A stretch of 51,492 nt of DNA, from positions 1-51,492 of IMG/VR virus record IMGVR_UViG_3300042731_008773; one strand, 5' to 3'. The notes beneath the pieces are model-generated. The model was not told the origin of the DNA, did not search any database, and worked only from the letters and a program-made list of their open reading frames with translations. This DNA is from a virus. Shown here piece by piece: positions 661-50,134 of the stretch. Every line of letters begins with the position of its first letter. The first letter of the stretch is position 1. The position numbers and the translations under genes are program-made.

Positions 661-669
661 GGAGCAAAT

Positions 670-1419: not shown

Positions 1420-1445
1420 CTTAACATTAAAAACAAGGAGCAAAT

Positions 1446-22154: not shown

Positions 22155-22215
22155 TATTTATGTCAATGAAAATTATTATTTATATCAAAAAAAATAATAA
22201 TTTTTTATAAAATAC

Positions 22216-22244
22216 TTGACAAAGTACATAAATATATGTACTAT
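22216..22244 (+). promoter_or_regulatory. Island promoter P1 with palindromic operator
   Basis: A perfect -35 TTGACA (22216-22221), a 17-bp spacer and -10 TACTAT (22239-22244). The spacer holds GTACATAAATATATGTAC (22224-22241), an inverted repeat that reaches into the -10. The same 38-bp block recurs at 24040 and 24448. A bound repressor would block RNA polymerase. It drives the genes from 22284 to 23995. Confidence 0.85.
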
Positions 22245-22283
22245 AGTAGTAGAAGTTAAAATTAAAAATTCAGGAGAAAATCA

Positions 22284-22448
22284 ATGATAAAAATGATAAA
22301 AAAAATAATAACAGGGTTTAGGTTTTTAAATATTCCAGATTTTTTACTAAAAGATGGAAATAAGTTATACGGGCCGAAGCCCGTATTGAATATACCGAGA
22401 TCATTCAGGCATTGGAAAGCATGCCTGAAGAATCATTTTCAAAATTAA
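22284..22448 (+). CDS. Small protein of the hairpin-rich island (54 aa)
   Basis: The ATG follows the SD AGGAGAAAATCA and gives MIKMIKKIITGFRFLNIPDF... ending HFQN, 54 aa, basic. The 3' half is overlaid by hairpins: ATACGGGC-CGAA-GCCCGTAT (22367-22386), TTCAGGCAT/ATGCCTGAA (22404-22429) and an 11-bp AT stem over the stop (22439-22465). Another frame over 22363-22437 also looks protein-like (IEYTEIIQALESMPEES), so a frameshifted remnant is possible. No family is recognised. Confidence 0.45.
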   Translation: MIKMIKKIITGFRFLNIPDFLLKDGNKLYGPKPVLNIPRSFRHWKACLKNHFQN

Positions 22449-22657
22449 ATATATTTTAATTTTGAAAGTCTTGCCGCCATCCATGGGCGTGGATCGAATC
22501 CAAGCAAGACGCATAACGGAATTACTTTCTTCGTAAGCCGGTGCGATTCCGGAACGGCGACCGTGGCCGTTGGACAAGAGTGTCATCGGGGAAAGTAAGG
22601 TAGGGTAAGGATATATACTTGCCCTATTTTAAAAAATTTTTAAATAGGAGAAAAAAT
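22449..22657 (+). other. Structured, GC-rich leader between island genes
   Basis: This 209-bp stretch has no convincing gene but several nested inverted repeats: GTCTTGC/GCAAGAC (22468-22510), CCGG/CCGG (22538-22552), AACGGC/GCCGTT (22553-22571), and CCTATTT/AAATAGG (22623-22648), whose 3' arm covers part of the SD (AGGAG) of the next gene. It may be a cis-acting RNA that controls translation of the gene at 22658. It is richer in GC than its surroundings. Confidence 0.45.
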
Positions 22658-23083
22658 ATGAAGATGATAATCGCAAGGGTCTATGAAACGAATGGCCCTA
22701 TTTATTTCCTTGGTTCGTCTAACGTAGACGAAATCGAGGAAATATGGAAAATAGAATCAAAATCGGATTTTGATTCTATCAACGATTCCTGCCATGGAAA
22801 CTTGTCCTGTGACGGCAGCACTTGGCAGGATTGGGAAGGTGTATTTTTCGTCCACTATTGGGACGGGAATAATTGGAAGGCTTTACAAATCGACGATGAA
22901 TTTGAAATCGTCGAGTATGAAGAGGTGGAGGACACCTCTCCCGAGCCGGCTTTCTACTTTGGGAAAAGAATAGAAGTAGATGACCAGTCCATTGAACTGG
23001 TCACGAGTAATATGTCAGGAAATATTACTCCATTCTGGATGAGTCATCCCGAATACCTGTGGAACACCATTCGGGGGGCTTAG
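22658..23083 (+). CDS. Hairpin-tiled island protein, function unknown (141 aa)
   Basis: The ATG at 22658 follows the SD AGGAGAAAAAAT; an in-frame start at 22619 lacks an SD. The acidic 141-aa protein contains STWQDWEGVFFVHYWDGNNWKALQIDDEFEIVEYEE; no family recognised. The coding sequence carries successive perfect stems, including a 14-bp inverted repeat with a single-base centre (22751-22779), TGACCAGT/ACTGGTCA (22981-23003) and GAGTAATAT/ATATTACTC (23005-23030). Transcribed from P1. Confidence 0.65.
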   Translation: MKMIIARVYETNGPIYFLGSSNVDEIEEIWKIESKSDFDSINDSCHGNLSCDGSTWQDWEGVFFVHYWDGNNWKALQIDDEFEIVEYEEVEDTSPEPAFYFGKRIEVDDQSIELVTSNMSGNITPFWMSHPEYLWNTIRGA

Positions 23084-23116
23084 GTAGCAATATTATTTAA
23101 AAAGGAGAAAAAAATT

Positions 23117-23503
23117 ATGAAAAATTACAACATTATTAACCACTCCCTGAGCGAAGAGCAACTCAGGGAAATTGAGGGGGAAATTATTTCCCCCTCCGAG
23201 GAGATCAAAAAAGGTCTCCTCCAATCGCCTGATAACGAGGAGGCGATTGGTTCTTTAGCTACAAAGATAATTTTGGAAGCTAAAGAGCGAGGATGTACTG
23301 CTATCCTCGCACCAGGCGGAAGTCCTGCTTTGATGGCGATTATTGCCATCGAAGCAAATGAGGCCAAAATTGGCCTCAAATTCTCTCACTCTGTGAGGGA
23401 TTTTTCTGAAGTCGTAGCTCCTGATGGAACTGCGACAAAAACGAACGTATTTCGACACGTTCGTTGGTTGGAATTCCATCCGACTAAATACAAAATTATT
23501 TAA
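23117..23503 (+). CDS. Hairpin-tiled island protein with SxR...PDG...VFRH motif (128 aa)
   Basis: The 128-aa protein has an SD AAGGAG. Its features (NHSLSEEQLREIEG, APGGSPALMAI and SHSVRDFSEVVAPDGTATKTNVFRHVRWLEF) resemble a widespread small phage/prophage family with an N-terminal LTxxQ segment and C-terminal PDG..KTNVFRH; its biochemical role is not known to me. At least twelve stems tile the gene, for example GAGGGGGAAA/TTTCCCCCTC (23174-23196), CCAATCGCCT/AGGCGATTGG (23221-23250) and ACGAACGT/ACGTTCGT (23441-23464). Confidence 0.65.
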   Translation: MKNYNIINHSLSEEQLREIEGEIISPSEEIKKGLLQSPDNEEAIGSLATKIILEAKERGCTAILAPGGSPALMAIIAIEANEAKIGLKFSHSVRDFSEVVAPDGTATKTNVFRHVRWLEFHPTKYKII

Positions 23504-23518
23504 GCATCCCTAACCTCT

Positions 23519-23552
23519 GCCCTCTTCGGAGGGCTCAGCCGGCGATGCTGAG
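23519..23552 (+). other. Two adjacent hairpins in intergenic gap
   Basis: GCCCTC-TTCG-GAGGGC (23519-23534) has a UUCG tetraloop, and CTCAGC/GCTGAG (23534-23552) follows at once. No T-run follows, so they are not typical terminators; they continue the hairpin tiling outside coding sequence and could block 3' exonucleases or mark processing. Confidence 0.6.
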
Positions 23553-23578
23553 AAATAAAATTAAAAAGGAGGAAAGCT

Positions 23579-23995
23579 ATGGGTTATTTTCATAAAGGTG
23601 GGCAAATAAAGGACTATATTTGCCCACACGGAATCAACTTTTCAAAATTCGGGGAGTGTAAAACTTGTGCACTCTCCGAAAGAGAGGATGACTACTTGCG
23701 AAGTCATCCTGAAAAAATTATTTCCCGGGCAACCGGGAAAGATATCGTTACCGTTTTTCAAAACAACGGTAACGAAGAGACCTTGTATCTTCCAACCGGA
23801 AAATACAAGGTTGGCTCGATCGTGAAAGAAACGATCGAAGAAGATGGGTATGAAGAATACCCAACAATAAAAGTTGTAAAAGGAACAGCGATCAAAGTTG
23901 TTCCTGAAATGAAAAAGTTTAAGATCCTTCCAAAAAGTTGGAAGGAAGAAGTCGAAGAACTATATATCTACTCGAAAGATATAATTTTCGAGTAG
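23579..23995 (+). CDS. Hairpin-tiled island protein with possible zinc knuckle (138 aa)
   Basis: The 138-aa protein follows the SD AGGAGGAAAGCT. N-terminal CPHG...CKTC (residues about 15-31) could bind zinc; the rest is beta-rich and charged. No family recognised. Ten stems cover nearly the whole gene: 11 bp at 23598-23627, 11 bp at 23648-23680, 9 bp at 23685-23710, 8 bp with GCAA loop at 23721-23740, 10 bp at 23746-23774, 8+4 bp at 23781-23810, 8 bp at 23816-23838, 7 bp at 23845-23863, 9 bp at 23925-23946 and 16 bp at 23962-24001. Confidence 0.65.
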   Translation: MGYFHKGGQIKDYICPHGINFSKFGECKTCALSEREDDYLRSHPEKIISRATGKDIVTVFQNNGNEETLYLPTGKYKVGSIVKETIEEDGYEEYPTIKVVKGTAIKVVPEMKKFKILPKSWKEEVEELYIYSKDIIFE

Positions 23996-24005
23996 ATATA
24001 TTTTT
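23962..24005 (+). terminator. Terminator overlapping the 3' end of the island gene
   Basis: A perfect 16-bp stem (23962-23977 with 23986-24001, 8-nt loop) spans the last codons and stop of the gene at 23579 and ends in TTTTT (24001-24005). It probably terminates the P1 transcript; P2 begins 35 bp later. Confidence 0.7.
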
Positions 24006-24039
24006 GACCTTTCCTCACTCCTCGAAGGGATAAAATAAC

Positions 24040-24068
24040 TTGACAAAGTACATAAATATATGTACTAT
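24040..24068 (+). promoter_or_regulatory. Island promoter P2 with palindromic operator
   Basis: TTGACA (24040-24045), 17-bp spacer, TACTAT (24063-24068). Operator GTACATAAATATATGTAC at 24048-24065, identical to P1. It drives the 89-aa gene at 24101. Confidence 0.85.
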
Positions 24069-24100
24069 AGTAGTAGAATAAATACTATTAGGAGAAAAAT

Positions 24101-24370
24101 ATGGAAAATATATATGCACAAATTAAAAAAATTAAGGATCTCTCAACTATCCCAACAGTTGAAGAGGATCCTTCTATTATCTCCATGCAGGAGAAAATAG
24201 AAAAAGATCTACAGGAAATTAAAAGTCTACAAGAGAAATTATTTTCTATTGTAGACTTTCTACATAAAGAAAATATATATAGAAAGAGTGCTTCATCTAT
24301 ATTTATAGATGAAATTAGAACACAGGTTCTGATAAATCTTGATAAATTAAATCAATTAAATCAATTTTGA
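24101..24370 (+). CDS. Hairpin-tiled island protein, coiled coil (89 aa)
   Basis: The SD AGGAGAAAAAT precedes the ATG. The 89-aa product is highly helical (EKDLQEIKSLQEKLFSIVDFLHKE) and probably a coiled coil. No family recognised. Stems include AAGGATC/GATCCTT (24134-24173) enclosing TCAACT/AGTTGA, and an 11-bp stem AAAGTCTACAA/TTGTAGACTTT (24222-24259). An 8-bp stem (24386-24412) lies just after the stop. Confidence 0.6.
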   Translation: MENIYAQIKKIKDLSTIPTVEEDPSIISMQEKIEKDLQEIKSLQEKLFSIVDFLHKENIYRKSASSIFIDEIRTQVLINLDKLNQLNQF

Positions 24371-24447
24371 GAAGAAATCTATTTCAGAGAATCAAGGAAT
24401 TAGAGATTCTCTTAGAAGAAGAAAAATAATAATTTTTTCAACATAAC

Positions 24448-24476
24448 TTGACAAAGTACATATATTTATGTACTAT
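24448..24476 (+). promoter_or_regulatory. Island promoter P3 with operator in reverse orientation
   Basis: TTGACA (24448-24453), 17-bp spacer, TACTAT (24471-24476). The operator GTACATATATTTATGTAC (24456-24473) is the exact reverse complement of that in P1 and P2, while the flanks are unchanged. The SD of the next gene overlaps the conserved GTAGTAGGAG, so the leader is very short. Confidence 0.85.
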
Positions 24477-24494
24477 AGTAGTAGGAGAAAAGTT

Positions 24495-25088
24495 ATGAAA
24501 AAAGAGTTTAAACTTGAAAATTTGGGCTTGGGAAAAGGCCCTTATAAATTAATCGATTATTTTGAAATCCAAGCTCCTGATACAGATTCAGGAGCTCTTT
24601 TTGCTATACCTATCAAAAACAGGACAAAATATCCTGTTAAAAATATTGGGGTTTGTGCAATATGCGGAACTCCAATTAAGAACAATTATGTTGTTCGGTC
24701 ATCTGATAACGAGATATTCGTTGTTGGGTGTGAATGTATTAAAAAAATCAATGACTGCATCTTGATTGATGCAGTTAAAAGACATCAGAAAATCCTCAAT
24801 AAAGTTAAGGATTTTCATCAAGCAAAAGCCTTATTTAGTAATTTTTTCGACTCGTTAACGCAACCTCAAATAGATCATCTAAAGAAGGAAATCAAGACGA
24901 ATTACAGACATTTTAGCAACGTCCGTCAAGCAGACGAATTCTGTAATATCTACGAGGCCCTCAAGGATCAAAAAGAACGAATTGAAAAAATACAACTAAA
25001 AAAACTCTCCGACATATTACAAGTCTCTTTTCAAACACACAAACAAGTCAAAGAAGAGATTGCTTACATTGAAAACCTTTTTACGTAA
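24495..25088 (+). CDS. Hairpin-tiled island protein with treble-clef zinc finger (197 aa)
   Basis: The ATG at 24495 has the SD AGGAGAAAAGTT; an in-frame start at 24468 lies inside the -10 and was rejected. Residues about 50-85 (GVCAICGTPIKNNYVVRSSDNEIFVVGCECIKKI) are a Cys4 zinc finger seen in many phage proteins of unknown role. The remainder is helical. Stems include AGCTCCTGA/TCAGGAGCT (24572-24596), AACAGGA/TCCTGTT (24618-24638), ACTGCATC/GATGCAGT (24754-24775), GAAAATCCT/AGGATTTTC (24788-24816) and ATTACAGA/TCTGTAAT (24901-24947). Confidence 0.65.
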   Translation: MKKEFKLENLGLGKGPYKLIDYFEIQAPDTDSGALFAIPIKNRTKYPVKNIGVCAICGTPIKNNYVVRSSDNEIFVVGCECIKKINDCILIDAVKRHQKILNKVKDFHQAKALFSNFFDSLTQPQIDHLKKEIKTNYRHFSNVRQADEFCNIYEALKDQKERIEKIQLKKLSDILQVSFQTHKQVKEEIAYIENLFT

Positions 25089-25264: not shown

Positions 25265-26263
25265 TTATATCTCCTCTGGAAATGGTTTCATATCAATTTC
25301 ATTATCCACCATGGCAATTACATCATCAAAATATGGTATTGCAGTACATCGACATTGAATATCCTGACCTGGATGTAATTCAATACCACCAATTGATAAT
25401 CGTTTCTTCCATGTCTTCCCGCCATCATCACTATATACACTAGCATCATCCCACCGGCATAATCTCCCCTGCATTGCTCTATGAGTTTTCCTTACCCTCT
25501 CGTCTCCAACAGTTGCCCATATATACATTTCAATACCGGCGTCAGTTTGTCTGCGCCTTGTAAACGACTCAGTAAGTTTTCCTACCTGGTCCCTTGCAAT
25601 TAAACGTGCTCTATTATCAATATATTTCTTTTGCAGTTTCTTACTTTTCTTTAGCATCTTTTTAACTGCTTCCTCAAAAGTCGGAGCACTTGCTGAATTT
25701 TGAACACCTTCACTAACAAGTAAATTGAGATTTTTAATATAATCTTGTGTTAATGATTTAATCAAAGTCTCATTGTTTTGTGCCCACACATTGATGACTT
25801 CAGCCTCCCAGGGCTCATAAGGAAAAAATTTAAGTCCAAGCACCTCTTCAGTAAATCTGAACCACTGCTTTGCATTTTGCTCCGAGGTGTCAAAGCCAAC
25901 ATTAACTATCATTGTCTTTAATCCCTCCTCCGACGCCTTCTGTGCCATCACTTGCAATTCCTCAATAGTCGTTGCAAACTCATCTACAAATGCATCCATT
26001 CTAATACTGTCTTGCTTTTCGGTATTAAGATTATACCCAATGACCCAATTCATTAGATTGGCTTGCAGGATCAAATATGCTGTTTCCGTAAGTGGTTTCA
26101 TCCAAGTTCTTAATGCTTGCCAGTACTGCCGTTCGATTGCATGAGGATATATCCACTTTTTGCGTTGTGGACGTTTATTTCTTTTACGATTACCTTTACC
26201 CATATTACGACGACGCTGATAAAGCATTTCTTGAAATACAGTTGTATTATTAAATTGAGGCAT
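25265..26263 (-). CDS. Head morphogenesis protein, Mu F / SPP1 gp7-like
   Basis: The 332-aa protein has the family C-terminal signature: NRARLIARDQVGKLTESFTRRRQTDAGIEMYIWATVGDERVRKTHRAMQG, then PGQDIQCRCTAIPYFD (PF04233). The N-terminus is very basic. Such minor head proteins bind the portal and help procapsid assembly. In related phages it lies right after the portal gene; here the type IV-B module separates the two. Confidence 0.85.
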   Translation of the reverse strand: MPQFNNTTVFQEMLYQRRRNMGKGNRKRNKRPQRKKWIYPHAIERQYWQALRTWMKPLTETAYLILQANLMNWVIGYNLNTEKQDSIRMDAFVDEFATTIEELQVMAQKASEEGLKTMIVNVGFDTSEQNAKQWFRFTEEVLGLKFFPYEPWEAEVINVWAQNNETLIKSLTQDYIKNLNLLVSEGVQNSASAPTFEEAVKKMLKKSKKLQKKYIDNRARLIARDQVGKLTESFTRRRQTDAGIEMYIWATVGDERVRKTHRAMQGRLCRWDDASVYSDDGGKTWKKRLSIGGIELHPGQDIQCRCTAIPYFDDVIAMVDNEIDMKPFPEEI

Positions 26264-26472
26264 TATATTCTTTTTCCTAATTTCGTTAATAACAGTCTTT
26301 TATTTCTTTTTTTACCTTTCAAGTATTTATATTCGATTCCGTCCCATCCAGTTAAAGGGACAACCCAATATAAAATACACCATTCTTTAAATATTCCATT
26401 ATCAATTGTTTTTGCTAATCGAATAAACAACCATTGGAGAAAGTAATAATTTAATATACCTAATTTAGACAT
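26263..26472 (-). CDS. Small phage protein, function unknown (69 aa)
   Basis: The 69-aa protein reads LNYYFLQWLFIRLAKTID...EWCILYWVVPLTGWDGIEYKYL, aromatic-rich with a basic C-terminus. Similar short W-rich proteins occur next to phage head genes, but the function is unknown to me. The stop overlaps the Mu-F-like start by one base. Confidence 0.5.
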   Translation of the reverse strand: MSKLGILNYYFLQWLFIRLAKTIDNGIFKEWCILYWVVPLTGWDGIEYKYLKGKKRNKRLLLTKLGKRI

Positions 26473-26635
26473 TTACTTTCCTTTTTCTACGATATAGTGA
26501 CCGACGTTTGTTGGTGCCGTTTGTTATTGTTTTGCCTTGTCTTGCAAGTCTTTTTTTACTGGTTGTTTCTTTTGCAATCTTTACCATATCTAATTTTTCA
26601 ACTTCTCCATATATCCCGTCATTTATTTGTTGCAT
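26465..26635 (-). CDS. Small basic protein, function unknown (56 aa)
   Basis: ATG at 26635 with SD GGAGGATATT; 56 aa, MQQINDGIYGEVEKLDMVK ending in the strongly basic NKRRSLYRRKRKVNV. It overlaps the next gene by 8 bp. A nucleic-acid-binding or capsid-associated role is possible, but nothing specific is recognised. Confidence 0.5.
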   Translation of the reverse strand: MQQINDGIYGEVEKLDMVKIAKETTSKKRLARQGKTITNGTNKRRSLYRRKRKVNV

Positions 26636-26664: not shown

Positions 26665-27375
26665 TTACTGCAATTTATGCAAAATATCACTATAATATTC
26701 TCGTTCCCATAAATTTTTATCAAAATTATCCCCTCTTTTTATACCTATTGAAGCAACTCGTAAATATTCACGTTTATAACGACCTCCTCCAAGCATCGCA
26801 TAATTAGAATGAATTGGTAATTTATAATGATTTAAATAAGCGAAAACATCTTTTTCTTTCCACCACCCCAAAGGACGACACGTGTTTTTAGTTTGATAAC
26901 CATATAATTTCATTACTATCTTTCTTATACCAGACTCATCTGCTCTAATACCAGATACATATTTATTTCCATATTTTTTATTAGCTATTTTAAATCCTTT
27001 TTCAATAGTTCCTGTAGCTCTCAATCTATTCCCATCAAACCATCGATCTATATGTATTTCATTATAATTTACATTTCTAAATTGTTTTAAAAATTTATCC
27101 CTAACAACAAAACAATAAGGATTTACTATATCTTTCACAACAATCCAAACAAAAGGAATATTTAAACCTGACTGAAGACATAAATGAATAAGTACAGTCG
27201 AATCCTTTCCCCAGGAAATAGAAGCATAATTCGGTTTAAATTTTTTTATAATATTGATTGCATCAATTTCTTTTTTTCTGACATTATTTAATTTATAATT
27301 TATTAAATCAATTTCTTCATACTCCTTCCATAATTCTAAATCTTCTTTTGTATGTCGTTCACATTCTATGAGCAT
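26665..27375 (-). CDS. cysH: CysH-like PP-loop enzyme of the type IV-B module
   Basis: The 236-aa protein has the PP-loop ISWGKDST (residues 53-60), which binds ATP or adenylylated substrates in PAPS reductases and related sulfurtransferases, then VSGIRADESGIRK and a C-terminal CRPLGWWKEKDVFAYLNHYKLP, typical of CysH-like proteins. CysH-like genes are a known, unexplained companion of type IV-B csf operons. It is the last gene of the block and overlaps the SPOUT gene by 10 bp. DndC-type DNA phosphorothioation is an alternative, but no dnd genes are seen. Confidence 0.75.
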   Translation of the reverse strand: MLIECERHTKEDLELWKEYEEIDLINYKLNNVRKKEIDAINIIKKFKPNYASISWGKDSTVLIHLCLQSGLNIPFVWIVVKDIVNPYCFVVRDKFLKQFRNVNYNEIHIDRWFDGNRLRATGTIEKGFKIANKKYGNKYVSGIRADESGIRKIVMKLYGYQTKNTCRPLGWWKEKDVFAYLNHYKLPIHSNYAMLGGGRYKREYLRVASIGIKRGDNFDKNLWEREYYSDILHKLQ

Positions 27376-27767
27376 TGTTTTATACTCCAGTCATATAAAA
27401 TAATAGATAAAGAAGCTTCTACAGTAAGACAAAAACTATTAATTGTAGGAATTTTTAATTTATTGTTACAATTGATTTTTTTAGGTAAACCACAGGTTTC
27501 TCCACCAATTATTATACCTTCAATATTTTTCCAATCAAAATTGTATATTGATTTTTCATAATAATTTTCAAATGCTACTATATTTTTTAAATTATTAGGA
27601 AAAGAAATTGTTTTAATTTGTACTTTATCTTTTGCAGTAAATAAGTTACCTTTTAATTTATAATTTTTATTATCAGAAATAATAAAAATTTCTTCTATAC
27701 CAAAACTATAACAAGTTCTATATACTCTATTTAGATTCCTATTAACATTATACAAATAAATTTTCAC
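27366..27767 (-). CDS. SPOUT (TrmH/SpoU-like) methyltransferase in the type IV-B block
   Basis: The 133-aa protein has the TrmH-family pattern: N-terminal MKIYLYNVNRNLNRVYRTCYSFGIEEIFII, the SAM-knot motif GIIIGGETCGLP and the final IPTINSFCLTVEASLSIILYDW. Such enzymes 2'-O-methylate RNA ribose. It is shorter than typical (about 150-160 aa), as often in single-domain SpoU forms. It overlaps cysH and the zinc-finger gene (ATGA). I know no published link of SPOUT enzymes to type IV-B, so the association may be new. Confidence 0.7.
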   Translation of the reverse strand: MKIYLYNVNRNLNRVYRTCYSFGIEEIFIISDNKNYKLKGNLFTAKDKVQIKTISFPNNLKNIVAFENYYEKSIYNFDWKNIEGIIIGGETCGLPKKINCNNKLKIPTINSFCLTVEASLSIILYDWSIKQCS

Positions 27768-28276
27768 TTTTTCTCCTTATTCCTTCCATAATTAGGATTG
27801 ATATATTTTCGGATATGTTGTCGCCGGCAATTTCTACAAACTGTTTTACCAGGAAAAAAACTTTTAAACATATATTCTTTTTTACTTTCACCACAAATAT
27901 CACAACAATTAAAATAATTAGGGGAATTTTTTTTATACTTCTTCCTTCTTTTTTTTTCTCTTTTATCTGCTTTGTCAAACGGAAGCTGACGATTAAAAAT
28001 TTTTTTAATATAAGAAAAAGAATAAGAAGAAATTACATGCCTATAAAAATAATATAATTCACGTTGTAATAATAAATTTCTTTTTTTCAAATCACCTTCT
28101 GATAAACAAGCAAAGGCGATGATTTGAAAAACATCCTCTTTATAATAAGGATAAACATATTCAAAAATTCTATTATGTTTTGCAAAAGTAAAAAATAATA
28201 GAAAATCAGGAATAATCTCTGCATATTTTTTTATTATAAAAAAAGTACCTGTTCCAGAATAATTAATACTCAACAT
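27764..28276 (-). CDS. C4 zinc-finger protein in the type IV-B block, function unknown
   Basis: I chose ATG 28276 (MLSINYSGTG; 170 aa), preceded by AAAGGGAAAT; a TTG at 28312 has no SD. The N-terminal 100 residues are helical (EDVFQIIAFACLSEGDLKKRNLLLQRELYYFYRHV), the middle is very basic (KREKKRRKKYKKN), and the C-terminus has CCDICGESKKEYMFKSFFPG followed by VCRNC, a C4 finger like those of phage HNH-related proteins. It overlaps csf3 and the SPOUT gene. It could bind nucleic acid. Confidence 0.55.
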   Translation of the reverse strand: MLSINYSGTGTFFIIKKYAEIIPDFLLFFTFAKHNRIFEYVYPYYKEDVFQIIAFACLSEGDLKKRNLLLQRELYYFYRHVISSYSFSYIKKIFNRQLPFDKADKREKKRRKKYKKNSPNYFNCCDICGESKKEYMFKSFFPGKTVCRNCRRQHIRKYINPNYGRNKEKK

Positions 28277-28938
28277 GGAATAATTATTTCCCTTTGATTT
28301 TTTGGATGCCAATATGGGGGATTAACTGCTCCATATCCTATTTTAAATCCTGTGTATTCATTTTGCTTTTCTATTGGAAGAGTACGCATTAAAATTTTAA
28401 TATTATTTCCTTTGGCATAAACACTTAAATCGTCTTCTATTTTTTCAATTTCCCATGAAGAAATAAAACCATACCCTATTTTTCTATAATAACCAATAAA
28501 ATTTACATCTTTTAAAAGACGCTGACATTCTTCAAAATTACCATTCACAAACCATATAATTTTATCTATAAGTTTTACATGAATAGGAGCAAACCGGCTT
28601 TTATATACTCCTCCTCCAATTGATAGAACTCTCCTTTTGTCTGATTTAATTAATAGACTTAATTTATCAGTTTCAAATCGATATTGATGTCTATCATGCC
28701 ATTCTGTATATATTTTATAAATTGGATTAGAACACCTATATATTTTTAAATTTTGTATCATAAAATAATTAATAGGTATAGGAATATTTTCAAATTCCGA
28801 AAGTGGAGTAGATCTTAAAAATTTCTTTCCAGACACCTTCTTCATTTTAAAACTTAAAATGTATGTTAATAAAGAATCAAGTAAAGGAGGATCCCCACAT
28901 AAAGGAGATCCTAAATTAGCTGTTACTTTTAAATTCAT
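28270..28938 (-). CDS. csf3: Csf3 (Cas5-like) subunit of type IV-B complex
   Basis: The 222-aa protein starts MNLKVTANLGSPLCGDPPLLDSLL and has the RAMP-type glycine-rich segment FIGYYRKIGYGFISSWEIEKIE, plus IYTEWHDRHQYRF, matching Csf3, the Cas5-group subunit that caps the 5' end of the guide in type IV complexes. The gene overlaps csf2 by 4 bp (ATGA). Assignment by motif and operon order. Confidence 0.8.
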   Translation of the reverse strand: MNLKVTANLGSPLCGDPPLLDSLLTYILSFKMKKVSGKKFLRSTPLSEFENIPIPINYFMIQNLKIYRCSNPIYKIYTEWHDRHQYRFETDKLSLLIKSDKRRVLSIGGGVYKSRFAPIHVKLIDKIIWFVNGNFEECQRLLKDVNFIGYYRKIGYGFISSWEIEKIEDDLSVYAKGNNIKILMRTLPIEKQNEYTGFKIGYGAVNPPYWHPKNQREIIIPC

Positions 28939-29855
28939 TTTTTCTCCTTATCTTCAGAAAAATTTTCATTCAGCCATTGTATACATTTTTCTTTATTTTT
29001 TATTATATGATCTTCATAATTTGATATATACATATCTATCTTATCGTCAGTAATTTCTATTTCTTTACACTCAATAAAATATCTCATATTTAAAAGACCA
29101 TGTCCAATTCTCGCTTGTCCTCCTATTGTTCCTCCTAATTCAGACCATGTTTTAAGTGCTAAAAATAAACTTCCAACTTCAAGTAAAGATACCTTATTCA
29201 AAATAAAACCATGATAAAACATAGCCCCTGGAATAACTGTCTGTCCAGAATACAACATTAAATTGCTTTTGGAACTTTCTATATTTTTATGTAATAATTC
29301 AGAAGCATCTTTTCTTTTTAATGCGTCTCCTCTTGTATATTGATATTGTTTTATAAAATCATCCGACATTTTTAAACAATCATTTGTTAATTTCCATTCA
29401 TTTGGCAAATGATTGTTTATATTTTTTTTATTCTCCTCACAAATTAATACACCACGTTTACAAATCATACTACCTGCCACGATTTGATCTCGTAAACTCC
29501 CACCAAGTAAACGAAATAAAGGAAATAAAATTTGTAATTCAGCTATAGACTTCATATTCTCATTTATAGAACTTTTTGTAAGTGCTCCTCCATAAAACAT
29601 ATAATTTACTTGATCTATATTTAATTTCCCTGCAAGATCTAATTTATCTATTAAAAATAAAGTGCCAGGCTCTCTTATAAATTTATGTCTAATAGCGTTT
29701 CCGGAAATTACAGGAACATCTTTTATTTTGTCATTATATAAAATTTTTTCTTTATTTATTAAAGATTCATTACCAGCCGTTCCCATCATATGTGTTAGAG
29801 AAGACAATACTTTTGAAATACAATGTATATTTACATTTAATAATTTTTCACTCAT
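28935..29855 (-). CDS. csf2: Csf2 (Cas7-like) backbone subunit of type IV-B complex
   Basis: The 306-aa protein has typical Csf2/Cas7 features: LSSLTHMMGTAGNESLINKEKI, VPVISGNAIRHKFIREP near the N-terminus, a LLGGSLRDQIVAGSMI segment, and the C-terminal SELGGTIGGQARIGHGLL. Cas7 subunits polymerise along RNA and form the helical backbone. The gene overlaps cas11 by 8 bp and csf3 by 4 bp. Confidence 0.85.
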   Translation of the reverse strand: MSEKLLNVNIHCISKVLSSLTHMMGTAGNESLINKEKILYNDKIKDVPVISGNAIRHKFIREPGTLFLIDKLDLAGKLNIDQVNYMFYGGALTKSSINENMKSIAELQILFPLFRLLGGSLRDQIVAGSMICKRGVLICEENKKNINNHLPNEWKLTNDCLKMSDDFIKQYQYTRGDALKRKDASELLHKNIESSKSNLMLYSGQTVIPGAMFYHGFILNKVSLLEVGSLFLALKTWSELGGTIGGQARIGHGLLNMRYFIECKEIEITDDKIDMYISNYEDHIIKNKEKCIQWLNENFSEDKEKK

Positions 29856-30384
29856 TTTCTTCCTCCTGAAATAAATCTAACTCTTTTTTCATATTTTTTC
29901 TTTTTCTTACCCTTATTTTTTCTTCTATAATTTTTTCCTTCTTATCATCATATTTTTTTCTCCATAAATCCCTTGCATGAATAAGAAAAAGAAAATATTT
30001 CTTTTCAATAAGCTTCAAAAATTCAACTTTCCATTCTAAAGATTTTGTAGAAATAATATCTACAAATGATATAAGAGATTCATTTGCAGCCACTTTACCA
30101 GGTTCAGCTTTTATATAATCCAAAGAACAATTTATAAACATATCAATATCATCCCCTGCTTTTGCAATAGAAGCAAGCAATCCATTTCCTATTCTTTCCC
30201 ATAAAGTTTTACGATCCAAATCACTTGAAAATAGTTCTGGTAAAATGGAAATAAATTTTATTATTTCCATTTTTAAATCCTCCTGATCTTCTACTTCTAA
30301 TTTTTTAAACGTATCCACCACCCCTGCTACTTCCAAACGAAATTCTTCCAAAGAAATAGAAGTTACATTACTTTTTTGATTCAT
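29848..30384 (-). CDS. cas11: Small subunit (Cas11-like) of type IV-B complex
   Basis: The 178-aa protein is all-helical (LPELFSSDLDRKTLWERIGNGLLASIAKAGDDIDMF) with a strongly basic C-terminus, and lies between csf1 and csf2, the place of the Cas11 small subunit in type IV-B loci. Small subunits form the belly of the effector. There is no diagnostic motif, so the call rests on fold character, size and order. It overlaps csf1 by 17 bp. Confidence 0.65.
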   Translation of the reverse strand: MNQKSNVTSISLEEFRLEVAGVVDTFKKLEVEDQEDLKMEIIKFISILPELFSSDLDRKTLWERIGNGLLASIAKAGDDIDMFINCSLDYIKAEPGKVAANESLISFVDIISTKSLEWKVEFLKLIEKKYFLFLIHARDLWRKKYDDKKEKIIEEKIRVRKRKNMKKELDLFQEEENE

Positions 30385-31012
30385 TTCTTGATTCCTCCTT
30401 ATTTTTTGCCAACCATGCAGCCAATTGACTTAATAATTCATTTTGTATAGTTAACCATTTCTCATATTCAGAAATAGTATTATAATAATCATTAACAGCT
30501 ATGAAATAATTAAAATGAGGTTTCACTAATAAAGCCGGTTTTCCAATAGCTGCTGTTAAATAATCTGCTAACTTCAATCTACTTATTAATTTACTTATAT
30601 TTACATATATTCTTTTTTCTTCAAATTGAATAGGATAATCATCTTTTGTTTGTGCCCAAATGCTTCTAAAAGCAATATTCTTTTTTCCTGATTCTGAAAT
30701 AATTATTTTAAAAGGGGGTTCTGGTGGAATTAGTATTTTCTCTCTTATCTCTTTTACATGTTTTTTTGAAAAAGCAATTCTTTTATCTTTAGTAATTACC
30801 CAGGAATATAAACGAGGAGAGCCTGTTCTTACTTCCTTATCAATCATTTCAATTTTTGATTTGCTTCCAAAAAAATAAGCACATTCTTCACAAACATATT
30901 TTGATAAGGAATCTGCAACAATATCAACATTTGTAAAAGTTGACCTAACAAAATCTTTTGTGGAATACTTATTAGTACATACACAACCACAAAAATAACA
31001 ATTATAATTCAT
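30368..31012 (-). CDS. csf1: Csf1 (Cas8-like large subunit) of type IV-B complex
   Basis: The 214-aa protein has the Csf1 zinc finger: C5-x2-C8 and C41-x2-C44 flanking STKDFVRSTFTN, followed by SPRLYSWVITKDKRIAFSKK and PPEPPFKIIISESGKKNIAFRS, as in Csf1 proteins. Csf1 is the signature protein of type IV systems. SD GGAGG precedes the ATG, and it starts 33 bp after the portal stop in the same direction, so the csf block is probably transcribed with late genes. Confidence 0.8.
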   Translation of the reverse strand: MNYNCYFCGCVCTNKYSTKDFVRSTFTNVDIVADSLSKYVCEECAYFFGSKSKIEMIDKEVRTGSPRLYSWVITKDKRIAFSKKHVKEIREKILIPPEPPFKIIISESGKKNIAFRSIWAQTKDDYPIQFEEKRIYVNISKLISRLKLADYLTAAIGKPALLVKPHFNYFIAVNDYYNTISEYEKWLTIQNELLSQLAAWLAKNKEESRNESKK

Positions 31013-31045: not shown

Positions 31046-32314
31046 TTATATCAAAGTATTATTTTCTAATTCAGGAAACCTCATCTTCCTTGCTTCTTCA
31101 CTATCATAAATTTGATTCATAATATTAAGATTATCTGTTTCTGCTTCTATTTTACCAATTTCAGCTAATTCCTTTTCAGTAGGTTCCCATAATGGATTAA
31201 GTTCAACTTCATATTCTTCAATTGGTTCTCCTTCTTCAGTTTGTCTTATTTGAGGATAAACATAACCAGCAACTAAATTAACTATTTTTTGTAATTCTGG
31301 CAATAATATAATTTCTTGTTTGCTCGATACATCATCATAATAATTTCTTATATCACTCTCACCTGTAGCATTCATGCCGGCAGGGGATCGTCCGAACAAC
31401 TTAGTAACAGGAATCCCACACACAGAAGATAAATTCATCATTCCTCTGTCAACAACATCACCAATTCCATTGAGAGAAACAGTATCTCTTGAATAGTCTT
31501 CATTCTCTCCAAGTAGAACGGCGTTTATAATTGATTTGCTTGCATTGATAATTTCCATACGATTGTAACACATATCAACACCAGACTTTCCTTGCGACAA
31601 TATTTGTGCAAGATTTGAAAGCTTATATTTACCAACTGAAAATTCAAGCATAAGATTAGAAATACCTCTTTCAATTGCTGAATAATTTGCAAGTCGCTGC
31701 CATATTTTTTGTAATGTTGATAATCCCCAATATCTGTACTTAATATCAAGTTCTTGACAATCCGAACTTACTTCCCCTTTAAATATTAAACATCTCGAAT
31801 TATGAACTTTCATTATATTTCCATCTCGTTTATAGATTGGAAATACCTCTATCTCCTCAAAATATTTACTATTTGGATCATCCACAATATCCGTACTGAT
31901 CAAGGGAATACGTGCAGCACTATAAACCCTCAAGGATTTTATTTCACCAGATGTTTGATTTAATGGATTTTCAAGTTTACCATTTTTTGTAATAATAACA
32001 ATTAATGCACCACGATATAACCTGGCATACTTTAATGCTTTGTTTATTGCAGTTCTTACACCAAGACGGCTCATTTCTTTTTTTATTACTTCATCATCAT
32101 TTTTTATTTTCCAACCATTCCTCGTCATATCATCTGGTACAACATCAACAATCTTAGAAGCAAGACCATCACCATCATACAAATTAGAAAGAGTTGAATC
32201 ATCAAATAAAACATATCCCCCCCAATCATTATGTTTTGTCTTATCAGATCGTTTGCCAAGACCAGCAAGTAAATTTACCCAACCATCTAATCTTGTCATC
32301 ATATCATTAAACAT
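31046..32314 (-). CDS. Portal protein (DUF1073-like)
   Basis: The 422-aa protein starts MFNDMMTRLDGWVNLLAGLGKRSDKTKHNDWGGYVLFDD...LSNLYDGDGLASKIVDVVPDDMTRNGW, the signature of anti-gate DUF1073 portals. Later motifs are KYARLYRGALIVI, CGIPVTKLFGRSPAGMNATGESD and the acidic tail. It forms the dodecameric DNA channel. Gene order terminase-portal is standard; downstream the csf block interrupts the usual portal to Mu-F pairing. Confidence 0.85.
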   Translation of the reverse strand: MFNDMMTRLDGWVNLLAGLGKRSDKTKHNDWGGYVLFDDSTLSNLYDGDGLASKIVDVVPDDMTRNGWKIKNDDEVIKKEMSRLGVRTAINKALKYARLYRGALIVIITKNGKLENPLNQTSGEIKSLRVYSAARIPLISTDIVDDPNSKYFEEIEVFPIYKRDGNIMKVHNSRCLIFKGEVSSDCQELDIKYRYWGLSTLQKIWQRLANYSAIERGISNLMLEFSVGKYKLSNLAQILSQGKSGVDMCYNRMEIINASKSIINAVLLGENEDYSRDTVSLNGIGDVVDRGMMNLSSVCGIPVTKLFGRSPAGMNATGESDIRNYYDDVSSKQEIILLPELQKIVNLVAGYVYPQIRQTEEGEPIEEYEVELNPLWEPTEKELAEIGKIEAETDNLNIMNQIYDSEEARKMRFPELENNTLI

Positions 32315-32483: not shown

Positions 32484-33953
32484 TTACATTTGCCAAAGAG
32501 CATCATCACTCTCAATTAGTCCTGAATATTCGAGTACTCCTGTAATTCCATCAGAACAATCATCATGTTTATTTGCCTTAAAATTCTTTTTATATCTCAG
32601 TAAATGTTTTGCAAATAAAGGAAACCGAGTCGTCCAATTAATTGGCATTAAAATTTTTCTCTGTACTTCAGCACTGTTAGTAATAATTCTACTTTCTTTA
32701 TTTGCTCCCTGATGAAACCAATTTATTACAAGTTTATTTTTTGACAACCTGTCAACATTCCTTGCAAATCCCCTACCTCCATTATTTGATTCAATAAATG
32801 CTTCTCTAATATGATTCCTTATAAGCATATTTGCTGTTTCTATCTCAGTCACCTCATGTGGTTCTTCTGTATAATAAATATCCAAAACATAAATCATATC
32901 ATCAATACCAACTCCAAAACAAATAGAACAAAGATAATCTGTACCGGTATCCGCCGTGTCGGTATAATTTCTAAGGTATCTAAAATCAGGTAAACGACTC
33001 CAAATATTAAAACCTTTATATAGTAACCCAACTTTCGGTTTTGGATCCCCTTGATGTAAAGACTCAAACTGCTCCTCATCAAGATTCCTTGTATCTTCTA
33101 ATTTCTTTTTGCTATGTCGATGTGGCCATAAAGGTTCTCCTATTTTTCTTTGATCTATTTCAGTTGAAGCATGATTCATTAAAGAAGGAAAATTTATTTT
33201 ATACCAAGCATTGTCAATTATATTTTTAGATTCTAACTGTTCTTTATTTTCAATTAAAATTACTTGCTCCTTATTTTCAAGCCACCCAATTAAATCTCCT
33301 TCATTCCATCGAGTAAATACAATTAACTCCTGACTATCATTATGTAATCTATTCCTTACAACTGATGAGTACCAATCAATAACACTGTCTAATATTACCG
33401 GACTGTTTCCTTCAGCATAATCTTTATACAAATCATCCATTATCATTAGATCAATTGGATTCCCTCCTAAAGGACCTCCTCTTCCCACAGCAAGTAATGA
33501 CCCCCGATAATTTACAATTTCAAATTCATCTTTTGTTTTCTGAAAAGCACTGTCTGATTTTTGAGTAAATTTTGTCTTAGCAATTGTTGTCTCCGAAAAT
33601 ACATTATAATACTCTTGAGAGCCAATAATTCTCTGTACATCAACACTAAACTTCCGCACAAAAGTTGTTGAATATGAAGCTATGCCAACTTTTAAATTAG
33701 GATTTAAACCAAGCATAAATGCCGGTAAACGTCTTGAAGACAATTCACTCTTTCCATGCTGAGGTCCAATCGTAACTATTAATTTTTTTATAATACCAAA
33801 TGCAAAAAGATTTAATATATTAGCATAAGTGCTGTGAAATGTTGTTTCCTTATAAGCTGGGAAGGTATATTTAACAAATGTTCCAAAATTCTTTGACGCC
33901 AAACTTCGCTGTATAAGTTCCAATTGTATTTGTTGTAATGCCAATCGACTCAT
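32484..33953 (-). CDS. terL: Terminase large subunit
   Basis: The 489-aa protein has the Walker A motif TIGPQHGKSE (residues 61-70), Walker B DLMIMDD (about 170-176), the adjacent LVTIGP / ARGG context and a C-terminal nuclease region with FIESNNGGRGFARN and DDCSDGITGVLEYSG. It is the packaging ATPase/nuclease that binds the portal. The start overlaps the stop of the small membrane gene (ATGA). Confidence 0.9.
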   Translation of the reverse strand: MSRLALQQIQLELIQRSLASKNFGTFVKYTFPAYKETTFHSTYANILNLFAFGIIKKLIVTIGPQHGKSELSSRRLPAFMLGLNPNLKVGIASYSTTFVRKFSVDVQRIIGSQEYYNVFSETTIAKTKFTQKSDSAFQKTKDEFEIVNYRGSLLAVGRGGPLGGNPIDLMIMDDLYKDYAEGNSPVILDSVIDWYSSVVRNRLHNDSQELIVFTRWNEGDLIGWLENKEQVILIENKEQLESKNIIDNAWYKINFPSLMNHASTEIDQRKIGEPLWPHRHSKKKLEDTRNLDEEQFESLHQGDPKPKVGLLYKGFNIWSRLPDFRYLRNYTDTADTGTDYLCSICFGVGIDDMIYVLDIYYTEEPHEVTEIETANMLIRNHIREAFIESNNGGRGFARNVDRLSKNKLVINWFHQGANKESRIITNSAEVQRKILMPINWTTRFPLFAKHLLRYKKNFKANKHDDCSDGITGVLEYSGLIESDDALWQM

Positions 33954-36681: not shown

Positions 36682-36709
36682 TTGACAAAATTTTATGCCC
36701 CTATATATT
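36682..36709 (+). promoter_or_regulatory. Rightward early promoter
   Basis: TTGACA (36682-36687), 16-bp spacer, TATATT (36704-36709). It points at the sigma-like gene and replication genes and lies 8 bp after the iterons. Confidence 0.7.
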
Positions 36710-36711
36710 AG

Positions 36712-36818
36712 AAATAACATAATAATACTTTCTAATAAAAGAGAATGAATAAAAATCCCAACTGCACGGCCGTTCGTGCAGATTAAAAATAACATAATAA
36801 TACTTTCTAATAAAAGAG
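36712..36818 (+). repeat. Duplicated translation-initiation region with hairpin mini-ORF
   Basis: A 32-bp direct repeat (36712-36743 and 36787-36818) contains the SD region AAAAGAG. Copy 1 is followed by ATG 36745 of a 13-codon ORF (MNKNPNCTAVRAD, stop 36784-36786), copy 2 by the real gene at 36826. The mini-ORF contains a perfect 7-bp hairpin CTGCACG/CGTGCAG (36762-36781, 6-nt loop). It may be a leader peptide that controls translation of the sigma-like gene. Confidence 0.6.
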
Positions 36819-41775: not shown

Positions 41776-43170
41776 ATGTCAAAGTGGAAAAGAAAACAAA
41801 TTGATGTTGATATTGAGAAAGATATTCTTATTGGAATAATAACAAACGATAGATTTATTACAGAAATTCAAAAAATGTTAGTGATGGAAAACTTTAAAAC
41901 ACCATATGCAAAAAAAATAGTTATGTGGTGTAATGAATATTTTAAAAAATATAAAAAAGCTCCAGGAAAAAATATAAAAAGTATTTTTAATTCTTATATT
42001 AAAAATCAAAATATAGATGAAACACAAATTGAATTAATAGAAAAATTTTTATCAGGTTTATCTGATTCTTATATTAAAAAAAATTTTAATCTTCAGTATG
42101 CACTTGACAAAGCAGAATTATATTTTAGAACACGTCAAATTGAATTGCATAGAGATAATATAGTTGCATTACTTATGCGAAATGAGATTGATGAGGCAGA
42201 AAAAGAAATTGCAACATTTAAAAGAGTTACAAGACCCTCTACAGTTGGTATTGATATATTAAATGACAATATTAATAAATATTTGAATGAAGAATATGAG
42301 AAATTGTTTTCTTTACCAGGTGATTTGGGAAAACTCGTTGGAACTTTTCACCGTGGAGATTTTGTAGCTGTTGCAGGTCCGGCAAAACGAGGTAAAACAT
42401 GGTGGCTCATACTTTTTGCTATGGAGTCCTTTTTTGCTGAATTAAATATTTTATATTTTGATCTTGAATCTACAGAATCAAAAATGTTAAATCGATTCTA
42501 TACCCATATGTCCGGACAACCAAAAAATAAAGAAATAATTTCTTTGCCTTATTTTGATGAGAATAATTTTATACAACAACGTAAGGTTAAAAAAGAAGGA
42601 TTAACAGGAAAAATAATTAATAAAAAAAGAGAACAACTAAAACAAATGGTAGCAAAAGGTTCTATTAGATTAATGAATGCGGCTCAGTATAGTATTAATG
42701 TTACTGATATAAAAGTAATTCTTGATAATTTAGAATATTATCATAACTTTATTCCAGATGTAATTATTATTGATTATGGTGATATATTATCTCCAGAAAA
42801 ATATTATGAGGGTAAAGATGAAAGACATAGAATAAATAGAACGTGGGGTTCACTTAGAAGTTTAGCTCAGGAAAAGCATTGTCTTGTTGTCACCGGTACA
42901 CATACAAATAAATTGACTTTTAAAAAAGATATAGAACAAGGTGATCTATCAGAGGATATAAGAAAAATGGCACATATTACACATGGAATAGCTCTTAATC
43001 AAACAACTGAGGACAAAAAACAATCTCTTATGAGAATAGGTGTAATAGCTTTGCGTGAGGAAGAATTTTTTGTTGATGAGGAAGTTATTGTATTACAATG
43101 TTTAAAGATAGGACAACCTTATATTGATAGTCGATTTAAGAAAAAAGTAAAAAATTTAAATGAAGGATAA
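41776..43170 (+). CDS. Replicative DNA helicase (DnaB-like, RecA fold)
   Basis: The 464-aa protein has Walker A AGPAKRGKTWW (about residues 196-206), the downstream ILYFDLESTESKM, Walker B VIIIDYGDIL and TGTHTNKL / RKMAHITHGIAL motifs of DnaB/RecA-type helicases. The N-terminal 150 residues are helical. It unwinds DNA at the fork and likely works with the primase at 39371. Confidence 0.8.
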   Translation: MSKWKRKQIDVDIEKDILIGIITNDRFITEIQKMLVMENFKTPYAKKIVMWCNEYFKKYKKAPGKNIKSIFNSYIKNQNIDETQIELIEKFLSGLSDSYIKKNFNLQYALDKAELYFRTRQIELHRDNIVALLMRNEIDEAEKEIATFKRVTRPSTVGIDILNDNINKYLNEEYEKLFSLPGDLGKLVGTFHRGDFVAVAGPAKRGKTWWLILFAMESFFAELNILYFDLESTESKMLNRFYTHMSGQPKNKEIISLPYFDENNFIQQRKVKKEGLTGKIINKKREQLKQMVAKGSIRLMNAAQYSINVTDIKVILDNLEYYHNFIPDVIIIDYGDILSPEKYYEGKDERHRINRTWGSLRSLAQEKHCLVVTGTHTNKLTFKKDIEQGDLSEDIRKMAHITHGIALNQTTEDKKQSLMRIGVIALREEEFFVDEEVIVLQCLKIGQPYIDSRFKKKVKNLNEG

Positions 43171-43174
43171 AAAT

Positions 43175-43231
43175 TATAAATTTTTTAATTCTAATGTGTA
43201 TATATTTATAGATGAATAAAATATTTTAAAA
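43175..43231 (+). promoter_or_regulatory. Repeated promoter-like element, copy 2
   Basis: Nearly identical to 604-660: TTTTTTAATTCTAATGTG, then TATATATTTATAGATG and AATAAAATATTTTAAAA. It lies immediately upstream of the QueE gene, after the helicase stop. Confidence 0.6.
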
Positions 43232-49901: not shown

Positions 49902-50066
49902 ATGTCAAAAATAAATATTATAAAAAAAATTCCCTGTGAAATTTTTACTCGTTCAGTGGGTTATTTTAGACCTGTATCTAATTGGAATAAGGGCAAAAAA
50001 GCAGAATTTAGAGATAGATTTACTCATGATCCAAAGAAAATTATAAATAAATTAAAAAAAATGTAA
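49902..50066 (+). CDS. Stand-alone NrdD C-terminal glycyl-radical domain (54 aa)
   Basis: ATG 49902 after SD GAGGAGGGTG; 54 aa: CEIFTRSVGYFRPVSNWNKGKKAEFRDR. This matches the C-terminal glycyl radical region of anaerobic ribonucleotide reductase (RVxGYxRPVxxWNxGK), with the radical Gly in VGYFRP. No catalytic domain is present. It may be a spare radical domain, like GrcA for pyruvate formate-lyase, or a remnant. Suggests an anaerobic host. Confidence 0.7.
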   Translation: MSKINIIKKIPCEIFTRSVGYFRPVSNWNKGKKAEFRDRFTHDPKKIINKLKKM

Positions 50067-50075
50067 TTTATTTAT

Positions 50076-50120
50076 AATTCTAATGTGTATATATTTATAG
50101 ATAAATAAAATATTTTAAAA
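50076..50120 (+). promoter_or_regulatory. Repeated promoter-like element, copy 3
   Basis: AATTCTAATGTG, then TATATATTTATAGAT and AATAAAATATTTTAAAA match the copies at 604 and 43175 (one G to A change). It is immediately upstream of the gene at 50135. Confidence 0.6.
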
Positions 50121-50134
50121 GGAGAAAGTAAAGA

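What the first reader, a model, noticed from the sequence alone, without database searches (positions are those of the whole stretch)
26665..31012. Type IV-B CRISPR-Cas effector module inside the structural operon of a phage
Seen: csf1 (Cys4 finger), a helical small subunit, csf2 (GGTIGGQARIGHG), csf3 and a CysH-like PP-loop protein in order, each gene overlapping the next, on the same strand as the portal (33 bp upstream) and the Mu-F-like head gene downstream. Known: csf1-cas11-csf2-csf3-cysH is the type IV-B layout, usually on plasmids, without array, Cas1/2 or Cas6, and of unknown function. Inference: the phage makes the complex late, together with virion proteins, so the complex might coat RNA, act against competitors or host RNA, or even be packaged. 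No CRISPR array was found in the window.
Basis: partly seen in the sequence, partly recalled or inferred. Interest (0 to 1): 0.93.

Follow-up and report, generated by a model that had tools for sequence, protein, structure and literature searches.

The report
Phage Cas complex with RNA-modifying enzymes
An uncultured phage carries, wedged between two of its head-building genes, a stripped-down CRISPR-type protein complex with no CRISPR memory, together with two likely RNA-modifying enzymes; one of these, a methyltransferase, recurs beside the same complex in at least six other phage contigs and is a new clue to what this puzzling complex does.

Summary
On a viral contig, 33 bp after the portal gene and before a Mu-F head gene, lies a type IV-B-like module: csf1, cas11, csf2, csf3 and a CysH-like gene (PADLOC E 3e-38 to 7e-87 for the four Cas subunits), with no Cas1, Cas6 or array. 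A second contig is identical across both junctions.

Some 35 related loci show two things. The cassette sits repeatedly, at different junctions, in the TerS/TerL/portal block, but also beside replication genes, so "late, perhaps packaged" is not general. The methyltransferase recurs in seven cassettes spread over the Csf2 tree (single clade rejected, p-AU 0.001); all 5 viral loci found by searching with it alone are csf cassettes; tblastn found none in 72,556 plasmids or 50,697 phages.

Virus-borne type IV-B is already published; the methyltransferase link and packaging-operon positions were not found in the papers searched. Best mechanism (inferred, untested): an array-less Cas7-type RNP holds RNA while partner enzymes modify it, for host takeover or counter-defence.

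The parts
32484..33953 (-). terminase large subunit (TerL), upstream context
   Evidence: PHROG phrog_38 E 2.4e-79
31046..32314 (-). portal protein, 33 bp upstream of csf1
   Evidence: PF06381 E 3.4e-82; phrog_146 E 9e-99
30368..31012 (-). csf1 (type IV Cas8-like large subunit, Cys4 finger), strong Shine-Dalgarno GGAGG
   Evidence: PADLOC typeIV_Cas8 E 2.9e-63; TIGR03114 E 3.6e-9
29848..30384 (-). cas11 small subunit, overlaps csf1 by 17 bp
   Evidence: PADLOC typeIV_Cas11 E 2.6e-44
28935..29855 (-). csf2 (Cas7 backbone), overlaps cas11 by 8 bp
   Evidence: PADLOC typeIV_Cas7 E 7.3e-87; profile matches type IV-B Csf2 structure 7jhy E 7.6e-4
28270..28938 (-). csf3 (Cas5), overlaps csf2 by 4 bp
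   Evidence: PADLOC typeIV_Cas5 E 3e-38
27764..28312 (-). zinc-finger protein of unknown function (CxxC...CxxC); likely start at 28276; homologue only in L042 (46%)
   Evidence: no family above cut-off
27366..27767 (-). minimal SPOUT (TrmH/SpoU-type) RNA 2'-O-methyltransferase, GTG start
   Evidence: PF00588 E 3e-8, above gathering; model pLDDT 83, pTM 0.81; Foldseek top TrmH 1v2x E 8.1e-8
26665..27375 (-). CysH-like PP-loop protein (SxGKDS motif)
   Evidence: PF01507 E 3.6e-8; model pLDDT 94, PAPS/APS reductase and tRNA thiolase folds
26465..26635 (-). 56-aa basic ORF, 29 bp after cysH, links the cassette to the head genes
26263..26472 (-). 69-aa ORF between cassette and Mu-F gene
25265..26263 (-). 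Mu-F-like minor head protein, downstream context
   Evidence: PF04233 E 2e-14

Best explanation
The locus is a phage-borne type IV-B-like effector module, inserted as one translationally coupled cassette into the packaging/head operon. Shown here: gene identities, gene order, the missing array and adaptation genes, recurrence in other phages, and the SPOUT methyltransferase as a recurring partner. Known from a homologue: the Csf proteins of Mycobacterium sp. JS623 assemble a Csf2/Cas11 filament around heterogeneous 55-60-nt RNAs that are mostly not crRNAs (PMC7937560). Inferred: the phage complex likewise picks up RNA from the infected cell. The PP-loop (CysH-like) protein, probably by adenylation chemistry, and the SPOUT protein, by ribose 2'-O-methylation, modify the bound RNA or an RNA paired to it. 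The purpose is to neutralise or re-programme host RNAs (guide RNAs, tRNA or other small RNAs) during infection, i.e. counter-defence or host takeover rather than adaptive immunity. The enzyme slot is exchangeable between phages (SPOUT, B12/radical-SAM, ParB-like, HD), as expected if the RNP is a scaffold for different modifying enzymes.
For: Cas subunits. Methyltransferase: PF00588 in 4 of 5 members; its model matches TrmH/TrmL/RlmB-type SPOUT proteins throughout the top 50; SPOUT enzymes act almost only on RNA (PMC9508554). Functional link: SPOUT genes in seven non-redundant csf cassettes (window, L042, L044, L045, L064, L065, and degenerate L035); a scan of 2.9 million viral contigs with SPOUT patterns alone gave 5 relatives, all in csf cassettes. 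Csf2 tree: at least 4 changes of state, a single SPOUT clade rejected (p-AU 0.00135). In L064 the gene order is shuffled (csf2-cysH-phosphatase-SPOUT-csf3), yet SPOUT stays. CysH-like PP-loop motif conserved in 31-32 of 33 rows without the ECG motif of PAPS reductase; fold neighbours include tRNA thiolases TtuA/NcsA and TilS. Long maintenance: window and L042 cassettes diverge about as much (46-62% identity) as their TerL/portal/Mu-F genes (43-61%). One operon: Shine-Dalgarno sites and overlaps, 33 bp and 29 bp gaps at the two ends.
Against: No RNA, substrate, expression or phenotype data exist for this phage. In the SPOUT family the canonical S-L-N loop (own knowledge of TrmH) reads C/S-L-T, and L035 and L045 lose further key residues, so some copies may not be catalytic. 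Many type IV-B cassettes have no SPOUT gene, so it is an optional partner. The slot between csf3 and cysH might simply tolerate cargo genes. No candidate guide RNA or array was found.
Confidence: 0.4

Rival explanations
1. Guide-RNA sponge: the Csf filament sequesters small host RNAs such as crRNAs or Argonaute guides, protecting the phage from RNA-guided defence; CysH and SPOUT are accessory or help trap or inactivate the bound RNA.
For: JS623 type IV-B complex binds heterogeneous RNA without specificity, and authors proposed a sponge (PMC7937560, PMC8175902). No array in the window or at related viral cassettes.
Against: [quoted passage not shown] A pure sponge does not explain a conserved PP-loop enzyme and a recurring RNA methyltransferase. 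In the window the module sits with late genes, where early counter-defence is not expected.
Confidence: 0.25
2. RNA-guided interference with competing phages or plasmids, using guides made in trans (host arrays or phage mini-arrays), as type IV-A does on plasmids.
For: Type IV-A represses competitor plasmids; Fuxivirus carries IV-B genes with a two-repeat mini-array (PMC10848311, PMC11656645).
Against: No array, Cas6 or Cas1 in the window. The only CRISPR-like spacing near the operon (36707-36818) reads as a duplicated leader with a 13-codon mini-ORF. No DinG- or RecD-like gene in the cassette.
Confidence: 0.12
3. The RNP is made late to be packaged into, or attached to, the virion and injected into the next host.
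For: Same apparent transcription unit as portal and Mu-F in the window; portal or terminase neighbours in 13 of 36 records within 4 kb, always the same strand.
Against: In L035, L041, L045, L055 and L059 the cassette lies beside helicase, DNA polymerase, clamp-loader or DnaB genes. Enrichment near packaging genes is modest and depends on a guessed background (P 0.007-0.16). The start of the late operon is a usual place for cargo genes (own knowledge).
Confidence: 0.07
4. Passive cargo: an ordinary cargo cassette whose SPOUT, zinc-finger and radical-SAM genes are unrelated neighbours in an insertion-tolerant slot.
For: Cassette G+C 26% against 32-38% in flanking head genes; slot contents vary between phages.
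Against: SPOUT recurs in four Csf2 lineages and, in the searches run, nowhere outside csf cassettes; the genes overlap one another.
Confidence: 0.16

Closest known systems
Type IV-B CRISPR-Cas (csf1-cas11-csf2-csf3-cysH), e.g. Mycobacterium sp. JS623 megaplasmid
   Same: Same core genes in the same order, PP-loop CysH-like protein, no array, Cas6 or adaptation genes; Csf2 profile matches JS623 Csf2 (7jhy).
   Different: Phage packaging operon instead of plasmid; Csf2 in a mostly viral clade separate from the plasmid clade (99/89); SPOUT methyltransferase and zinc-finger protein added.
Fuxivirus type IV-B (Bathyarchaeia virus, PMC10848311)
   Same: Virus-encoded type IV-B with CysH-like gene and no adaptation module.
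   Different: Archaeal virus; cas genes 1-5 are far in gene number from terminase and portal (27, 28); has a two-repeat mini-array; no SPOUT gene reported in the text read.
Skermania phage SPI1 (KR011061) ORF40-44
   Same: The only deposited phage of 50,697 with a Csf2 match; csf2-csf3-cysH found by profile; ORF40/41 take the csf1/cas11 positions.
   Different: Csf2 only 23% identical; near the lysis genes, no SPOUT; annotated hypothetical.
TrmH/TrmL/RlmB SPOUT (SpoU) 2'-O-methyltransferases
   Same: Fold and motif 1 and 2 residues.
   Different: 133 aa, no extra RNA-binding domain, altered motif 3; the family profile hit no gene in three bacterial genomes at E 1e-3.
Box C/D snoRNP (RNA-guided 2'-O-methylation; analogy only, from own knowledge)
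   Same: Would also combine an RNA-holding RNP with a 2'-O-methyltransferase.
   Different: Unrelated proteins; guide and target for the phage complex are unknown.

Membership tests
Type IV-B CRISPR-Cas | csf1, csf2, csf3 core genes | tested here: met
   PADLOC E 2.9e-63, 7.3e-87, 3e-38; NCBIfam hits below curated cut-off
Type IV-B CRISPR-Cas | cas11-like small subunit | tested here: met
   PADLOC typeIV_Cas11 E 2.6e-44
Type IV-B CRISPR-Cas | CysH-like PP-loop protein lacking the PAPS-reductase catalytic cysteine motif | tested here: met
   PF01507; PP-loop conserved, no ECG motif in 33 rows
Type IV-B CRISPR-Cas | no CRISPR array, no Cas6, no adaptation genes | tested here: met
   (repeats, Cas6, Cas1); Cas2 and Cas4 not searched by name; contig may be incomplete
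Type IV-B CRISPR-Cas | Csf2 falls in the IV-B branch of a type IV tree | tested here: inconclusive
   Tree lacks IV-A, IV-C and IV-E references, so it separates viral from plasmid IV-B-like Csf2 but cannot place the group within type IV
Type IV-B CRISPR-Cas | forms an RNP on 55-60-nt RNA | not testable with these tools
   needs expression and purification
CRISPR-Cas adaptive immunity | array plus spacer acquisition | tested here: not met
SPOUT/TrmH RNA 2'-O-methyltransferase | SpoU fold | tested here: met
   PF00588 above gathering score; Foldseek TrmH E 8.1e-8, TM 0.78
SPOUT/TrmH RNA 2'-O-methyltransferase | conserved catalytic/SAM residues (motif 1 N..R, motif 2 E, motif 3 SLN) | tested here: inconclusive
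   N11, R17, E90 kept in 5 of 7; motif 3 is C/S-L-T; residue roles from own knowledge of TrmH
PAPS reductase (CysH) | C-terminal ECG(I/L)H catalytic cysteine | tested here: not met
   no ECG in 33 rows

The most novel reading that the evidence does not exclude
Phage type IV-B complexes are RNA-directed (or RNA-holding) RNA-modification machines: the Cas7 filament presents an RNA or RNA duplex to a dedicated SPOUT methyltransferase and PP-loop enzyme, so that specific host or competitor RNAs are 2'-O-methylated or otherwise modified during infection. This would be the first function assigned to type IV-B and a Cas-based counterpart of box C/D snoRNPs.
Probability: 0.15. Interest if true: 0.95.

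Novelty: new variant of a known kind. Interest (0 to 1): 0.74.

Why it matters
Type IV-B is the Cas effector without array, nuclease or known function; the papers read here say its CysH partner is the main clue and ask for more (PMC8175902, PMC7937560). A recurring, apparently csf-specific RNA methyltransferase is an independent second clue: its enzyme superfamily acts almost only on RNA, which turns "what does IV-B do" into a testable RNA-modification question. The phage setting shows these complexes serve viruses in several lineages, not only plasmids. One cultured phage (SPI1) and a prophage in a 4.65-Mb chromosome contig make experiments feasible.

Tried and rejected
Assembly chimera: rejected by an identical second contig and by related phages with the same neighbourhood. 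CRISPR mini-array at 36707-36818 (two 37-nt repeats, 38-nt spacer): rejected; the repeats carry ribosome-binding-like sites and the spacer is a 13-codon mini-ORF with a hairpin. Rfam families and tRNAs in the window: none. First Csf2 alignment with plasmid sequences was too diverse to scan with. SPOUT profile against PDB sequences: no match at E 0.01, so the fold search was used. Late expression as a general rule: rejected by replication-side cassettes in relatives. Packaging-side enrichment: suggestive only, background guessed. Literature: no paper found linking SpoU/SPOUT to type IV; two key type IV papers are not in the library and preprints are not held, so novelty is not proven.
Full report
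WHAT IS THERE. The window is a 51,492-bp IMG/VR virus record. Its minus strand carries TerL (33953-32484), portal (32314-31046), then csf1, cas11, csf2, csf3, a zinc-finger gene, a SpoU-type methyltransferase gene, a cysH-like gene, two small ORFs and a Mu-F head gene. The Cas subunits match PADLOC type IV profiles at E 3e-38 to 7e-87; NCBIfam csf models hit at about 1e-9 to 1e-10 but below their curated cut-offs, so these are divergent members. The Csf2 profile also matches the solved type IV-B Csf2 (7jhy, E 7.6e-4). Successive genes overlap by a few to about 40 bp, several with good Shine-Dalgarno sequences. The cassette begins 33 bp after the portal gene and ends 29 bp before the next ORF, leaving little room for a separate promoter or terminator. 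Terminator-like sites in the region are at chance level. Cassette G+C is 26%, against 32-38% in flanking head genes.

One (27767-27366) is a 133-aa SPOUT protein: Pfam SpoU_methylase E 3e-8, above the gathering score. AlphaFold gives pLDDT 83 and pTM 0.81, and Foldseek returns TrmH first (E 8.1e-8, TM 0.78), with SPOUT proteins, nearly all TrmH/TrmL/RlmB/TrmJ-type, filling its top 50. The other is a CxxC...CxxC protein with one homologue, in L042.

REALITY OF THE LOCUS. L002, a separate 17,882-bp contig, is 100% identical over 15,387 bp spanning both junctions. L042 and L044 are related phages (portal 54% and 41%; TerL of L042 61%) with the same cassette at TerL|portal and at portal|...Mu-F respectively. 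Portal relatives L012, L015 and L018 have portal and Mu-F adjoining with no cassette, which serves as an empty-site comparison. Window and L042 cassette proteins diverge (46-62% identity) about as much as the head genes (43-61%), suggesting long residence in this phage lineage.

CONTEXT IN OTHER PHAGES. Across 36 non-redundant loci (viral contigs, one deposited phage and host contigs) a packaging gene lies within 4 kb in 13, always on the same strand, and within 1 kb in 8. Junctions differ: TerS|TerL (L009), TerL|portal (L030, L042), portal|Mu-F (window, L044), upstream of TerS (L025 and L071), with several TerL families. L071 is a prophage-like region in a 4,653,970-bp chromosome contig: csf1-cas11-csf2-csf3-wHTH-cysH, then a 132-aa ORF, TerS, TerL and portal. 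Other cassettes lie beside replication genes (L035, L041, L045, L055, L059). So packaging-operon position is recurrent but not a rule, and the statistical excess depends on a guessed background (P 0.007-0.16). Among 50,697 deposited phage genomes only Skermania phage SPI1 has a Csf2 match.

THE METHYLTRANSFERASE LINK. SPOUT genes occur in the csf cassettes of window, L042, L044, L045, L064, L065 and, degenerate, L035. A scan of 2.9 million viral contigs using SPOUT peptide patterns alone returned five relatives, all inside csf cassettes. tblastn with the L065 SPOUT protein found nothing in 72,556 plasmids or 50,697 phages, although L065 Csf2 finds 72 plasmids. The SPOUT profile hit nothing in three bacterial genomes at E 1e-3, so it stands apart from cellular SpoU enzymes. 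On the Csf2 tree the SPOUT-bearing rows need at least four changes of state and a single clade is rejected (p-AU 0.00135). In L064 the gene order is rearranged yet SPOUT is retained. Residues N11, R17 and E90 (window numbering; matched to TrmH motifs from own knowledge) are kept in 5 of 7 members, whereas motif 3 reads C/S-L-T instead of S-L-N: activity is likely in the window, uncertain in L035 and L045. In other phages the same slot holds wHTH, HD, ParB-like or B12/radical-SAM genes, and some radical-SAM cassettes have no recognised cysH (L021, L023, L043, L049, L052).

CysH-LIKE PROTEIN. It has a near-invariant PP-loop SxGKDS and no ECG motif, as reported for type IV-B CysH (PMC8175902). 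The model (pLDDT 94) resembles PAPS/APS reductases, CysD, tRNA thiolases TtuA/NcsA, LarE and TilS.

MECHANISM. Shown: composition, operon structure, recurrence, co-occurrence. From a homologue: the JS623 complex holds 55-60-nt heterogeneous RNA (PMC7937560). Inferred: the phage RNP holds RNA and partner enzymes modify it or a paired RNA, in host takeover or counter-defence. SPOUT enzymes act almost only on RNA (PMC9508554), and a 133-aa minimal SPOUT domain may need a partner for RNA selection, which the Csf complex could supply. No experiment tests this.

KNOWN VERSUS NEW. Virus-borne type IV-B is published (PMC10848311; also mentions in PMC11656645 and PMC9723712). In the papers searched I found no report of a SPOUT partner or of a packaging-operon location; preprints and most subscription papers are not held. 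I therefore call it a new variant of a known kind. Sampling is biased towards viral contigs and towards Csf2 sequences similar to the window's.

Noticed in passing
window 22180-25088: Island of small + strand genes inside the minus-strand late region, with three near-identical promoter/operator repeats (TTGACA plus palindrome AGTACATAAATATATGTACT) at 22180, 24004 and 24412.
   Followed up: partly
window 36707-36818: Two 37-nt direct repeats flanking a GC-rich hairpin and a 13-codon mini-ORF just upstream of the + strand operon; CRISPR-like spacing but best read as a duplicated leader.
   Followed up: yes
window 595-668, 43170-43231, 50054-50127: A 62-76-bp repeat (AATTCTAATGTGTATATATTTATAGATGAATAAAATATTTTAAAA core) directly upstream of three + strand genes; possible phage-specific promoter.
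   Followed up: partly
window 7-1859 and 51423-51492: Contig ends lie in tandem arrays (18-bp unit, about 102 copies; 15-bp unit), so the genome may be incomplete.
   Followed up: no
window 46281-48761: DNA polymerase A with 3'-5' exonuclease and an N-terminal uracil-DNA-glycosylase domain in one protein.
   Followed up: no
L064 7072-7884 and 9477-10004: csf cassette interrupted by an extra 270-aa gene and a dual-specificity-phosphatase-like gene (HCxxGxxRTG), with csf3 moved to the end.
   Followed up: partly
L023 11603-14235, L043, L049, L052, L021: Type IV-like cassettes in which B12-binding/radical-SAM genes stand where cysH is expected.
   Followed up: partly
L025, L036, L047, L031: ParB-like gene plus a second CysH-like gene next to or within csf cassettes, as also seen near csf genes on haloarchaeal plasmids (L005, L007).
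   Followed up: partly
L003 (Skermania phage SPI1 ORF40-44): Unannotated type IV-B-like module in a deposited phage genome with a cultured host.
   Followed up: partly
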